Shown here one piece after another: positions 29,109-34,347 of a stretch of 38,084 nt of DNA. The notes under the pieces were generated by a model, which was given only the letters and a program-made list of their open reading frames with translations, had not been told where the DNA came from and did no database searches. Both the position numbers and the translations under genes were made by a program. The first letter of the stretch is position 1; each line of letters begins with the position of its first letter. This DNA comes from a virus: positions 1 through 38,084 of the IMG/VR virus record IMGVR_UViG_3300008119_000019; one strand, 5' to 3'.

Positions 29109-29131
29109 GGGTGTATAGTTAATATACACCC
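29109..29131 (+). other. Perfect hairpin directly before the tRNA
   Basis: GGGTGTATA, five-base loop GTTAA, TATACACCC: nine base pairs. It ends two bases before the 5' end of the tRNA. There is no T-run after it. It may be a processing signal for the tRNA, or terminate the holin mRNA. Confidence 0.65.
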
Positions 29132-29209: not shown

Positions 29210-29290
29210 GCCCCACAGGCCTTTAGGATGGCTAGTTACACATCTATTCCCCTGCAAAGTGCAGGAATTTCTGTGGGGCCCCTTTTATTG
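29210..29290 (+). terminator. Structured terminator after the tRNA
   Basis: GCCCCACAG (29210-29218) pairs with CTGTGGGGC (29271-29279), nine bases, followed by CCCCTTTTATTG. Inside are two further hairpins: GATG...CATC (about 29227-29244) and ATTCC-CC-TGCA-AAG-TGCA-GGAAT (29246-29268). So a multibranched RNA of about 70 bases ends in a T-rich run, directly after the tRNA CCA end. Confidence 0.7.
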
Positions 29291-30428: not shown

Positions 30429-32042
30429 ATGAATAATACAATCAAAAGGATCTCTACTGTAGTAGTTTCGGCTATTGCAGCAACATTCTTGGTTGCAGTT
30501 CCACAAGCTCAAGCAGCGGTAAGTAACGGATACGTACTATCCGATTCTTTATCTGCAGGTGCTCGTGGTGTAACAGTATTGGCAGATACAACTAAGGCAG
30601 AGGCTGGAGTTAATGCAGTTGTTGCACTAACCACAAGCGATACCTTAGCTTCTACAGCAGATGACAATGTCTCATTAGAGATTTCTGGACCTGCAACATT
30701 TACTGATTACACAGCAGCGGGGTCAAACCCTACTGGTGCAACACTTACTAGTTTAGGAAAACTGTTTACATTTACAGCAACAACCTCATCAGCGGTCACA
30801 TTGCCAACAAATGTAAAATTAACTATTAATGGTGAGGGCACAGTAACTGTAACACAAAAGAAGAAGGTTGGATCAACTACTTCTACAATTGATATCAAGA
30901 CAATTTATGCCACAACTAGCGCAAAGACAAATACATTGTCTGTAGCGAACAGTTTTGGACGTGTCCAAGATACTTCAACACAAGGCACACTTGCTTCTAG
31001 CGTAGATGTTGCTGGATCAACAACAGTTGTTAATGGTGGAACAGGCTACGTAAACGTTCTTGCAAAAGACGCCTACGATGCAACACTTTCAACAAATGGT
31101 GTAATCCAAGCAATTGCTACTGGCGGAGCAGTTGTAGCGTGGGATGCAGCACCAACAACACAAGTAAATGCAGCAGCAAAAACTGGTGTTGGCGGAGTTC
31201 TTTATGTAACTCAAGGTACTGCTAATGCTGGAAAGCCAGTATCAACAACCATTACAATCACATTTAATGGAACACTACTTACAACAAAATCAATTAACTT
31301 TACTGGACAAGCTGCGTCTATCGTAGTTTCTGGTGAAGATATTGCACAGGCTGGCGGAGCACGTACAGGAACCTATGACTTTGTAGTCAAAGATTCTGCT
31401 GGTAATCAATTAGCTGGAATTACTCCAACTGCTGATACCACAAAGTATAGCGCACAAGTAACTGCAGTTTCTGTTGGCGGAGCATCATCTGCTACAGCAG
31501 TACAAACTGGTGGTTGGACATGCGCTGCTACATCAGGATCAACAAAGGTACGTATTCAGCACACACTTTCAGACCTTTCAGTAATCTACTCAAATGAGTT
31601 TGATGCACGTTGCGGTCAAGGTGTAAATAAGTACACAGCAACAATGGATAAGGCTTCTTATCTTCCAGGAGAGATTGCAACATTAACCGTAAGTGCAACT
31701 GATATTTCAGGAGCAAAGGTACACGATGCAGCGACACTTGGAACAGGAGTAGCAATTTCTGCTGGTGGCTTAACGCTAATCGGAACTGCTGCCTCAACAG
31801 ATACATTTACAAACGGTGCCAAGACATACAAGTTTACCGTTGGTAATAACACTGGTTCATACAATGCGGTAGTTGATCTACCTGCTTATGTATCAACAGA
31901 TTCTGCTAAGGTAGTATCATACAAGGTTGCACCAAGCTCAGCAGAGGTATCCAATGCTGAAGTTCTAAAGGCAATCGTTGCTCTTATTGCTCAAATCAAT
32001 AAGCAAATTGCAGCATTACAGAAACTACTTCTTAAGAAGTAA
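30429..32042 (+). CDS. Secreted Ig-like repeat protein
   Basis: A 537-residue protein with a textbook Sec signal peptide: basic NNTIKR, hydrophobic VVVSAIAATFLVAV, and an AQA cleavage site (about residue 29). The mature part is Thr/Ala/Ser/Gly-rich beta structure, with several Ig-like or bacterial adhesin-type repeats (VVNGGTGYVNVLAKDAYDATLSTN..., TYDFVVKDSAGNQLAGI, LPGEIATLTVSATDISG). The extreme C-terminus is an amphipathic helix (EVLKAIVALIAQINKQIAALQKLL). That end resembles tails seen on secreted proteins of small actinobacteria. Codons look like the rest of the genome. Could coat the infected cell surface or be a virion-surface protein. AAAAGGAAA precedes the ATG. Confidence 0.75.
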   Translation: MNNTIKRISTVVVSAIAATFLVAVPQAQAAVSNGYVLSDSLSAGARGVTVLADTTKAEAGVNAVVALTTSDTLASTADDNVSLEISGPATFTDYTAAGSNPTGATLTSLGKLFTFTATTSSAVTLPTNVKLTINGEGTVTVTQKKKVGSTTSTIDIKTIYATTSAKTNTLSVANSFGRVQDTSTQGTLASSVDVAGSTTVVNGGTGYVNVLAKDAYDATLSTNGVIQAIATGGAVVAWDAAPTTQVNAAAKTGVGGVLYVTQGTANAGKPVSTTITITFNGTLLTTKSINFTGQAASIVVSGEDIAQAGGARTGTYDFVVKDSAGNQLAGITPTADTTKYSAQVTAVSVGGASSATAVQTGGWTCAATSGSTKVRIQHTLSDLSVIYSNEFDARCGQGVNKYTATMDKASYLPGEIATLTVSATDISGAKVHDAATLGTGVAISAGGLTLIGTAASTDTFTNGAKTYKFTVGNNTGSYNAVVDLPAYVSTDSAKVVSYKVAPSSAEVSNAEVLKAIVALIAQINKQIAALQKLLLKK

Positions 32043-32053
32043 CTTCTGACACC

Positions 32054-32078
32054 TGGGGTATGTGTATAAAATGCCCCA
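32054..32078 (+). other. Hairpin just after the secreted-protein gene
   Basis: TGGGGTAT (32054-32061) and ATGCCCCA (32071-32078) pair over eight bases (one G-T) with a nine-base loop. Its right arm can alternatively pair with TGGGGC at 32153-32158, which would enclose the tRNA-like segment. No T-run follows. Confidence 0.6.
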
Positions 32079-32082
32079 CCTA

Positions 32083-32150
32083 GGTCTTATAGTTCAGTAG
32101 GTTAGAACACCATTATATTGGAAGACACCAGTTCAAGTCTGGTTAAGATC
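32083..32150 (+). ncRNA. tRNA-like RNA with a shortened anticodon arm
   Basis: Acceptor GGTCTTA/TAAGATC, D stem GTTC/GAAC with loop AGTAGGTTA, and T arm ACCAG-TTCAAGT-CTGGT all fold. But only 17 bases lie between base 26 and the T stem, where about 21-22 are needed for a normal anticodon arm plus variable loop. The best remaining stem is CCA/TGG with loop TTATAT. No usable anticodon is apparent. It may be a decayed tRNA or a non-coding tRNA mimic. A 3' CCA is absent. Confidence 0.7.
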
Positions 32151-32153
32151 GCT

Positions 32154-32197
32154 GGGGCGGATCAAAATTCCACCACCACACCTTTTTGGTCTGCCCC
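32154..32197 (+). terminator. GC-rich stem downstream of the tRNA-like RNA
   Basis: GGGGCGGA (32154-32161) pairs with TCTGCCCC (32190-32197), eight bases with one G-T. The loop holds ACC-TTTTT-GGT. Because the T-run is in the loop, this is not a standard terminator; it competes with the pairing that would enclose the tRNA-like RNA. Confidence 0.45.
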
Positions 32198-32202
32198 TCC
32201 TA

Positions 32203-32230
32203 TTGACATAGTACAAATTAATAGTATACA
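32203..32230 (+). promoter_or_regulatory. Strong candidate promoter
   Basis: Consensus TTGACA (32203-32208), 16 bases, TATACA (32225-32230); TACAAT at 32227-32232 gives an alternative 18-base spacing. It drives the glycosylase-like gene starting at 32263 and the tRNA-Arg/Thr run. Confidence 0.65.
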
Positions 32231-32262
32231 ATTATTATATAACTACTAGAGAATGGATAGAG

Positions 32263-32757
32263 ATGCAAACATTTCTAACATCTACAAATTCATACGAATG
32301 CGCTAAGTCGCTTGACTCTAAAAGATTAAATAAACAAATATTAGAGTGCTATCAAATACTAAATATCCTATCAAATAATTCGCCTTCTGGAGCATGGAGA
32401 AATCATCCAGCAGTTTTAATGTGGAAAGGCTATGAGCATGGCCTATGGAAATATGTTCAGTCAATGATACATGAAGCTAAGGGTCGTGGCATCAAAACAG
32501 ATAAGAACGAAGATAATTTAAATTCTTTATATAATAGATTTAGTAGTGATTGGGGAAAGCACCCACAAAATTGGTGGATGAATCAAGATACAGTTATGCG
32601 TATCATCACCACACATAAAGCTAATCTATTTAAAAAAGATCCTATGTATTATATTAAATATCAACACGCTACTACTAGCCCATACAATACTCCGTGCTGT
32701 GACAAATGCCAGTATTTTTGGGTAACACATTGGGAGAGAAATAATGCAGGAAGTTAA
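32263..32757 (+). CDS. Pyrimidine-dimer DNA glycosylase-like protein
   Basis: A 164-residue protein. The start QTFLTSTNSYECAKSLDSKRLNKQILECYQILNIL and AWRNHPAVLMWKGYEHGLWKYV match the pattern of the actinobacterial pyrimidine-dimer glycosylase family (LD-x-KRL-x-KQ, NHPA-x-x-MW-x-GYE). It would remove UV-induced dimers and be useful in surface waters. The C-terminus adds a Cys-x-x-Cys region (CCDKCQYFW) not expected in the family, perhaps a zinc site. The N-terminal helices differ from T4 DenV, so activity is inferred. It has its own promoter at 32203, and its 3' end overlaps the next gene by 14 bases. Confidence 0.65.
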   Translation: MQTFLTSTNSYECAKSLDSKRLNKQILECYQILNILSNNSPSGAWRNHPAVLMWKGYEHGLWKYVQSMIHEAKGRGIKTDKNEDNLNSLYNRFSSDWGKHPQNWWMNQDTVMRIITTHKANLFKKDPMYYIKYQHATTSPYNTPCCDKCQYFWVTHWERNNAGS

Positions 32758-33472: not shown

Positions 33473-33634
33473 ATGATAGAGTGTACAAGCTGTGGCACAA
33501 AAGAACTGCTTATTGTTTTTTCAAAGACAAAAAGTGGTGAGCAAATTTACTTGTGTCCCATGCATGTTCCATTACAAGTATTAGAGGATGGTGAAGAAGT
33601 ATGGCTGAAGGATATAAACCAACAGATGGTATGA
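33473..33634 (+). CDS. Small zinc-ribbon protein, possibly leaderless
   Basis: A 53-residue ORF: IECTSCGTKELLIVFSKTK, then IYLCPMHVPLQV. Two cysteines at the start (C-x-x-C) plus C-x-x-H later form a zinc-ribbon-like site. No ribosome-binding site; a strong -10 element lies four bases upstream. It overlaps the next gene by 34 bases in another frame. Unknown function. Confidence 0.5.
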   Translation: MIECTSCGTKELLIVFSKTKSGEQIYLCPMHVPLQVLEDGEEVWLKDINQQMV

Positions 33635-34347
33635 AGTCTGCTGCTCGTCGTGCCCTTCAATGGAAAAAAGAAGGAAGACGTGGTGGAACTAGAATTGGTT
33701 TAACTCGTGCAAACCAAATAGTAAATAATGAATCTCTAAGCGAAAGTACTGTAATGCGTATGTACTCTTTTTTTAGTAGACACGAGGTAGATAAAAAAGC
33801 CACTGGATTTAGTTCTGGTGAAGAAGGTTTCCCTAGCCCAGGCCGTGTTGCTTGGGATCTTTGGGGAGGAGACGCAGGTTATTCTTGGTCTCGTCAAAAG
33901 GCACAATCAATCAAGAATAAAAGAGAAATGAGAAAAATGAGTTCAATTTGGGACGGAGCATTCCTTGGACAATTGGGTAGAGAAAACTCTGCTCAGGCCG
34001 TGGAAGTAGAAGAAATTGATGCTCCACTAGAACCAGACACAGAGCCAGCGGTTGGAAATAATGTACCCGTAGTAGAGGAACAAGTTCCAGCACAAACACA
34101 ACCAGTCGCACAAATTACAGAAAATGTAGAAGTAAAAGAAACTGTTGAAGTTCCTGCCGTAGCAGAAGTTGCCCCAGTTGAAGTTGCTCCAGTTGTTGCT
34201 GAACCAGTTGTTGCTGAGCCAACAGTTGCTACTCCAGTATCGGAAGAGCCAAAAGCTGAAGTACAAAACGATGCTCCAGTTGAAGCAGTTCAAACAGAAG
34301 CACAAGTTGTAACAGAAGCTCCAAAAGTAAATCAACCTACGGAGTAG
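33601..34347 (+). CDS. Protein with a conserved phage N-terminal domain and Pro/Val/Ala/Glu-rich tail
   Basis: A 248-residue protein. Residues 1-~110 form a small basic helical domain: AARRALQWKKEGRRGGTRIGLTRANQIV, MYSFFSRHEVDK, RVAWDLWGGDAGYSWSRQKAQSI. The same domain type occurs in phage head-protease or portal-linked proteins. Residues ~130-248 are a low-complexity acidic tail (VAEVAPVEVAPVVAEPVVAEP). It overlaps the zinc-ribbon gene. A structural, head-associated role is possible, as the same motif set appears with the protein at 29710. Function not known. Confidence 0.6.
   Translation: MAEGYKPTDGMKSAARRALQWKKEGRRGGTRIGLTRANQIVNNESLSESTVMRMYSFFSRHEVDKKATGFSSGEEGFPSPGRVAWDLWGGDAGYSWSRQKAQSIKNKREMRKMSSIWDGAFLGQLGRENSAQAVEVEEIDAPLEPDTEPAVGNNVPVVEEQVPAQTQPVAQITENVEVKETVEVPAVAEVAPVEVAPVVAEPVVAEPTVATPVSEEPKAEVQNDAPVEAVQTEAQVVTEAPKVNQPTE

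What the first reader, a model, noticed from the sequence alone, without database searches (positions are those of the whole stretch)
32043..32260. tRNA-like RNA without a proper anticodon arm inside competing hairpins
Acceptor, D and T arms of a tRNA are intact, but the anticodon arm is about five bases short and reads CCA-TTATAT-TGG. Flanking GC blocks can form alternatives: hairpin 32054/32078, an outer clamp 32073/32158 around the tRNA-like part, or hairpin 32154/32197. These are mutually exclusive, so the segment could be a switch or a tRNA mimic, not just a decayed tRNA.
Basis: partly seen in the sequence, partly recalled or inferred. Interest (0 to 1): 0.65.

Follow-up and report, generated by a model that had tools for sequence, protein, structure and literature searches.

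The report
Phage tRNA-Asp that lost its anticodon
In one group of freshwater phages a transfer-RNA gene for aspartate has lost the piece that reads the genetic code, yet the rest of its fold has been kept through later mutations, so it has probably been kept as a tRNA-shaped RNA signal rather than as a working tRNA.

Summary
Rfam scores 32083-32151 (+) as tRNA (51.3 bits, cut-off 29). Acceptor, D and T arms are intact; the anticodon arm is 12 nt (CCA-TTATAT-TGG) instead of 17, so it has no 7-nt anticodon loop.

Relatives explain it. More distant phages carry a normal tRNA-Asp(GTC) in the same place, between tRNA-Asn and tRNA-Arg, inside the same two flanking hairpins. A 4-5 nt anticodon-loop deletion yields the short arm. 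It is shared by all nine contigs of this clade (window plus eight; four haplotypes).

It does not evolve like a working tRNA: 12-17 of 69 bases differ between haplotypes, against 0-2 of about 75 in the neighbouring tRNA-Arg and tRNA-Thr. It does not evolve like free decay either. D stem, T stem, tertiary positions and every acceptor pair are kept, one acceptor pair by a double change.

The two outer hairpins are strongly supported by covariation. The proposed clamp around the tRNA-like part is not, so the switch idea fails.

Best reading: an anticodon-less tRNA-Asp kept as an RNase P/RNase Z-readable tRNA-like element (processing or 3'-end signal), comparable in logic to mascRNA. A young pseudogene remains the main rival. 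Expression and processing are untested.

The parts
32054..32078 (+). Hairpin 1 (5' flank), 8 bp, with a loop GTGTATAAA that is conserved across relatives
   Evidence: Predicted in the minimum-energy fold. Covaries over 10 sequences: 4 of 5 consensus pairs have a double change; loop core TGTGTATAA is invariant.
32083..32151 (+). Anticodon-less tRNA-like RNA derived from tRNA-Asp(GTC); 7-bp acceptor, G as discriminator base, no encoded CCA
   Evidence: Rfam tRNA 51.3 bits. Syntenic normal tRNA-Asp in L177-L182, L342/L344. Model R1 built from it scores 65-72 bits on the best of those tRNA-Asp (L177, L178, L182, L179, L180; 41 for the divergent L181) against 27-48 for other tRNAs of the cluster.
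32092..32108 (+). D arm; A14, G18, G19, A21 kept
   Evidence: D stem unchanged in all four haplotypes; D-loop changes fall only at positions 15, 17 and 20a.
32110..32121 (+). Collapsed anticodon arm CCA-TTATAT-TGG (12 nt instead of 17); CTAC-TAAA-GTAG in L085-L087, CTAC-TATAA-GTAG in L088
   Evidence: Alignment A2; one compensatory pair C-G/U-A, one pair U-U versus C-G; derivable from CCACTCTGTCGAAGTGG by a 4-5 nt deletion plus about 3 substitutions.
32127..32143 (+). T arm ACCAG-TTCAAGT-CTGGT
   Evidence: T stem unchanged in the four haplotypes; one T-loop change, at position 59, in L084.
32154..32197 (+). Hairpin 2 (3' flank), 14 bp, C/A-rich loop TTCCACCACCACACC; terminator-like with a U-tract in the tRNA-Asp relatives, U-tract lost here
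   Evidence: 8 of 13 consensus pairs have a double change; loop conserved; relatives read ...CCCCCTCTTTTATAG after it.
32203..32232 (+). Promoter-like TTGACA-18-TACAAT ahead of the pyrimidine-dimer glycosylase gene
   Evidence: 11 of 12 consensus matches, the best in 28.5-38 kb, but the number of such sites there is as expected by chance. TTGACA is invariant in the four haplotypes and absent at the corresponding place of the tRNA-Asp relatives.

Best explanation
The segment is a phage tRNA-Asp(GUC) gene, in its own cassette of two flanking hairpins, that lost 4-5 nt of its anticodon loop (including the anticodon) in the ancestor of this clade and can no longer decode (shown: homology, synteny, deletion, arm length). 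Its acceptor stem, D/T elbow and flanking hairpins have since been kept (shown, with moderate statistics). It is inferred, not shown, that the transcript is still recognised by host RNase P at its 5' end (32082/32083) and by RNase Z or exonucleases behind the discriminator G. The element would then work as a tRNA-shaped processing or 3'-end signal between the 537-aa gene and the pyrimidine-dimer glycosylase gene, releasing a short, stable, uncharged tRNA-like RNA.
For: Normal tRNA-Asp at the same place inside the same hairpins in seven distinct relative sequences. Shared shortened arm in nine contigs with four haplotypes. Against tRNA-Arg and tRNA-Thr next door (0-2 differences in about 75) the element differs at 12-17 of 69 positions, so decoding constraint is gone. 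None of these differences lies in the 25 D-stem/T-stem/T-loop sites (P = 0.002 and 1e-4). All four acceptor changes keep pairing, one as a double change; random placement over the acceptor, D and T stems keeps all pairs with P = 0.004. No broken pair and no changed tertiary base in three lineages; neutral simulation gives P(0) = 0.026 to <1e-3 over the branch lengths tried. RNase P cleaves acceptor + T-arm model substrates without an anticodon arm (PMC11143913); RNase P and RNase Z read the elbow in mascRNA, which is not aminoacylated (PMC11693755).
Against: Only four haplotypes (effectively three lineages), few substitution events, and partly post hoc tests. With a strong transition bias the acceptor result alone weakens to P = 0.10. 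Local divergence next to the element between L086 and L088 is low (0.03-0.05), so part of the conservation may be recency. In the window lineage the anticodon stem has lost a pair (U-U), which looks like decay. No transcription or cleavage data. The 3' end reads G-CUG instead of the G-CCA seen in L177, which may weaken RNase P binding.
Confidence: 0.5

Rival explanations
1. A young tRNA-Asp pseudogene: the anticodon loop was deleted, nothing selects for the remainder, and it looks intact only because little time has passed.
For: Evolves about ten times faster than the neighbouring tRNAs. Anticodon stem partly broken in the window lineage. Variable region differs at 5 of 5 positions between window and L088. 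Hairpin 2 has lost its U-tract.
Against: No change at 25 D-stem/T-stem/T-loop sites between window and L086 or L088, while other parts of the element differ by 30-50% and fourfold sites of flanking genes by 19-51%. Acceptor double change U6-A67/C6-G67 and wobble-to-Watson-Crick changes; neutral simulation P 0.026 or lower.
Confidence: 0.33
2. A repurposed non-decoding tRNA mimic acting in trans, for example a decoy for a host tRNA-binding protein, tRNA-cutting defence enzyme or modification enzyme, expressed from the hairpin-bounded cassette.
For: Elbow and acceptor retained without decoding function. The cassette stays together next to different upstream and, in L179/L180, different downstream genes. 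Conserved single-stranded loops in both hairpins.
Against: No partner gene or target identified; most known anticodon nucleases need the anticodon loop that is missing here (general knowledge). Hairpins and loops predate the anticodon loss, so they do not argue for a new trans function.
Confidence: 0.12
3. Switch of mutually exclusive hairpins around the tRNA-like part.
For: The alternative pairings exist in the window sequence.
Against: Clamp shows no covariation and is broken in L088; hairpins 1 and 2 are each supported by compensatory changes and flank ordinary tRNA-Asp genes in relatives.
Confidence: 0.03

Closest known systems
Phage-encoded tRNA-Asp genes (syntenic copies in L177-L182, L342/L344)
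   Same: Same position between tRNA-Asn and tRNA-Arg, same flanking hairpins, same acceptor, D and T arms and discriminator G
   Different: Anticodon loop with GTC deleted, arm 12-13 nt instead of 17; hairpin 2 without its U-tract; sequence evolves much faster
mascRNA / menRNA (tRNA-like 3' ends of MALAT1 and MEN-beta RNAs, PMC11693755)
   Same: tRNA elbow and acceptor kept, no functional anticodon loop, sits at the boundary of a longer transcript
   Different: Eukaryotic, reduced D arm, processing shown by experiment; here a full D arm, a phage genome and no experiment. No homology claimed
MHV68 TMERs (viral tRNA-like followed by stem-loops, PMC7773990)
   Same: Viral tRNA-like followed immediately by a strong hairpin; most lack a 7-nt anticodon loop (review PMC4810235)
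   Different: RNA polymerase III and miRNA pathway; analogy of layout only
tRNA gene fragments left by element integration (PMC9897764)
   Same: Low-scoring tRNA-like sequence that tools may miscall
   Different: Here the gene is whole at both ends and only the anticodon loop is gone; the ancestor sits in the phage, not at an integration border

Membership tests
tRNA (Rfam RF00005) | Overall cloverleaf sequence/structure score above the family cut-off | tested here: met
   51.3 bits versus 29, model positions 1-71
tRNA (Rfam RF00005) | 5-bp anticodon stem with 7-nt loop and an anticodon | tested here: not met
   3-4 bp stem and 4-6 nt loop in all four haplotypes
tRNA-Asp (by descent) | Homology and synteny with tRNA-Asp(GTC) of relatives | tested here: met
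tRNA-Asp (functional) | GUC anticodon read by AspRS and the ribosome | tested here: not met
   Anticodon deleted
RNase P-dependent tRNA-like processing element (mascRNA-like logic) | Intact elbow (G18, G19 with T-loop) and 7-bp acceptor | tested here: met
   Invariant in four haplotypes
RNase P-dependent tRNA-like processing element (mascRNA-like logic) | Cleavage by RNase P and RNase Z in cells | not testable with these tools
   Needs end-mapping or in vitro cleavage
Bacterial Y RNA / YrlA (tRNA-like module) | Match to an RNA family other than tRNA, with a Y-RNA stem | tested here: not met
   No other Rfam family at or above its gathering score in the segment
tmRNA | tRNA-like domain with a tag reading frame | tested here: not met
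   ARAGORN reports no tmRNA
Conformational RNA switch | Both alternative states conserved by covariation | tested here: not met
   Clamp has no double changes and is broken in L088

The most novel reading that the evidence does not exclude
A phage lineage has exapted a tRNA gene: after losing its anticodon the RNA is kept as a tRNA-shaped processing or regulatory RNA, a bacterial-virus counterpart of mascRNA or of herpesvirus tRNA-like transcripts.
Probability: 0.45. Interest if true: 0.6.

Novelty: new variant of a known kind. Interest (0 to 1): 0.45.

Why it matters
Why phages carry tRNA genes is debated mostly in terms of codon supply. A tRNA that has lost its anticodon but keeps its fold under constraint would be direct evidence that phage tRNA genes can serve as RNA-processing signals or non-coding RNAs. 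It also gives a testable before-and-after pair: the same cassette with and without the anticodon in related phages.

Tried and rejected
Single-copy deletion or assembly error: rejected, the short arm is in nine contigs including the window. Normal tRNA read with another register: rejected by inspection, no 5-bp/7-nt arm fits. ARAGORN's tRNA-Tyr(ata) call on the L088 copy: rejected, the loop is 5 nt. Switch/clamp: rejected. Known RNA families other than tRNA: none. DNA match in annotated phages: none. Host via genome contigs with the 537-aa protein: no relative. The exact pattern ACCATTATATTGGAAGAC also hits L164 and L166, which show no tRNA-like context there and are chance. Literature searches found no described anticodon-less phage tRNA in the held open-access library; this is not proof of absence.

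Full report
WHAT IS THERE. The window is a 38-kb IMG/VR virus record. It carries tRNA-Met, tRNA-Asn, tRNA-Arg and tRNA-Thr genes and a fifth tRNA match by Rfam at 32083-32151, 51.3 bits. The fifth lies between a 537-aa gene of unknown family (30429-32042) and a pyrimidine-dimer glycosylase gene (32263-32757, PF03013). Acceptor, D and T arms are complete, but the anticodon arm is CCA-TTATAT-TGG, 12 nt instead of 17. Two hairpins flank it closely: 32054-32078 and 32154-32197. The phage is probably an actinophage: its DnaE protein is 59.8% identical to that of Streptomyces phage BillNye.

RELATIVES WITH THE SAME FORM. A scan with the upstream protein and one with the hairpin-2 loop found eight other contigs with the element. 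They form four haplotypes with the window: the window type; L083/L084; L085-L087 with arm CTAC-TAAA-GTAG; L088 with CTAC-TATAA-GTAG. The short arm is therefore a shared, inherited state.

RELATIVES WITH A NORMAL tRNA. A scan with the 248-aa protein at 33601-34347 and one with the hairpin-2 loop brought in more distant phages (L177-L182, L342/L344). At the same place, between tRNA-Asn and tRNA-Arg, they carry an ordinary tRNA-Asp(GTC). The same flanking hairpins are present, with conserved loops TGTGTATAA (hairpin 1; not covered in L181) and TTCCACCAC(C)ACACC (hairpin 2). Their hairpin 2 is followed by a short U-tract, as in a terminator; the window clade has lost it and shows a promoter-like TTGACA there instead. 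The upstream gene differs between the groups, so the cassette is a self-contained tRNA unit. The L344/L181 arm CCACTCTGTCGAAGTGG turns into the L086 arm by a 5-nt deletion in the anticodon loop plus three substitutions. The tRNA-like element is thus tRNA-Asp without its anticodon.

STRUCTURE TEST. On ten cassette sequences the consensus fold has 39 pairs, 20 with compensatory double changes, 99% of cells paired, far above slid and shuffled controls. Among the four short-arm haplotypes alone there are four double-change pairs: one in the acceptor, one in the anticodon arm, two in hairpin 2.

SELECTION TEST. Window against L086/L088: tRNA-Arg and tRNA-Thr differ at 0-2 of about 75 bases; the tRNA-like element at 12-17 of 69. 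Decoding constraint is therefore gone. [quoted passage not shown] The four acceptor changes keep every pair (P 0.004 for random placement over the acceptor, D and T stems; within the acceptor alone 0.013, or 0.10 with a strong transition bias). A neutral simulation on three lineages expects 4-12 broken pairs or changed tertiary bases; none is seen (P 0.026 or below). Fourfold-site divergence of flanking genes between window and L086/L088 is 0.19-0.51, though local divergence next to the element is lower. I read this as moderate evidence that the tRNA-like shape, not the tRNA function, is still selected.

MECHANISM. RNase P needs only the acceptor/T-arm domain and cleaves such model substrates (PMC11143913). 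RNase P and RNase Z recognise the elbow in mascRNA, which lacks a functional anticodon loop and is not charged (PMC11693755). The parts kept here are those parts, and the part lost is the one they do not need. The most economical account is an RNA-processing or 3'-end element between two genes. Transcription, cleavage and benefit to the phage are inferred. The main rival is a young pseudogene.

NOVELTY. By descent it is a phage tRNA-Asp; by function it fails the anticodon test for a tRNA. I found no description of a conserved anticodon-less phage tRNA in the searched library, which covers only part of the literature. I class it as a new variant of a known kind.

Noticed in passing
32168-32182 and relatives (A3 columns 136-150): Hairpin-2 loop TTCCACCACCACACC is nearly invariant across phages whose stem has been rewritten by compensatory changes; such a conserved C/A-rich loop suggests a protein or RNA partner.
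   Followed up: partly
32061-32070 and relatives (A3 columns 24-33): Hairpin-1 loop core TGTGTATAA is invariant while its stem covaries; the role is unknown (processing site or a -10-like element were considered).
   Followed up: partly
29109-29131 and about 29210-29290: tRNA-Met is also preceded directly by a hairpin (GGGTGTATAGTTAATATACACCC) and followed by pairing blocks CCCCACAG/CTGTGGGG, so hairpin-bounded single tRNA genes may be a general habit of this phage group.
   Followed up: no
30429-32042: The 537-aa protein has many relatives (75-100% identical) in freshwater viral contigs but no Pfam or PHROG family; in most of them a classic U-tract terminator follows instead of the tRNA-like cassette.
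   Followed up: partly
L088:3910-3980 (also L176:3479-3549): ARAGORN annotates this copy of the anticodon-less element as tRNA-Tyr(ata), an example of automatic miscalling.
   Followed up: yes
L181 / record IMGVR_UViG_3300047272_000250: The same tRNA-Asp cassette lies at both ends of this 104-kb record, suggesting terminally repeated or circularly joined ends.
   Followed up: no
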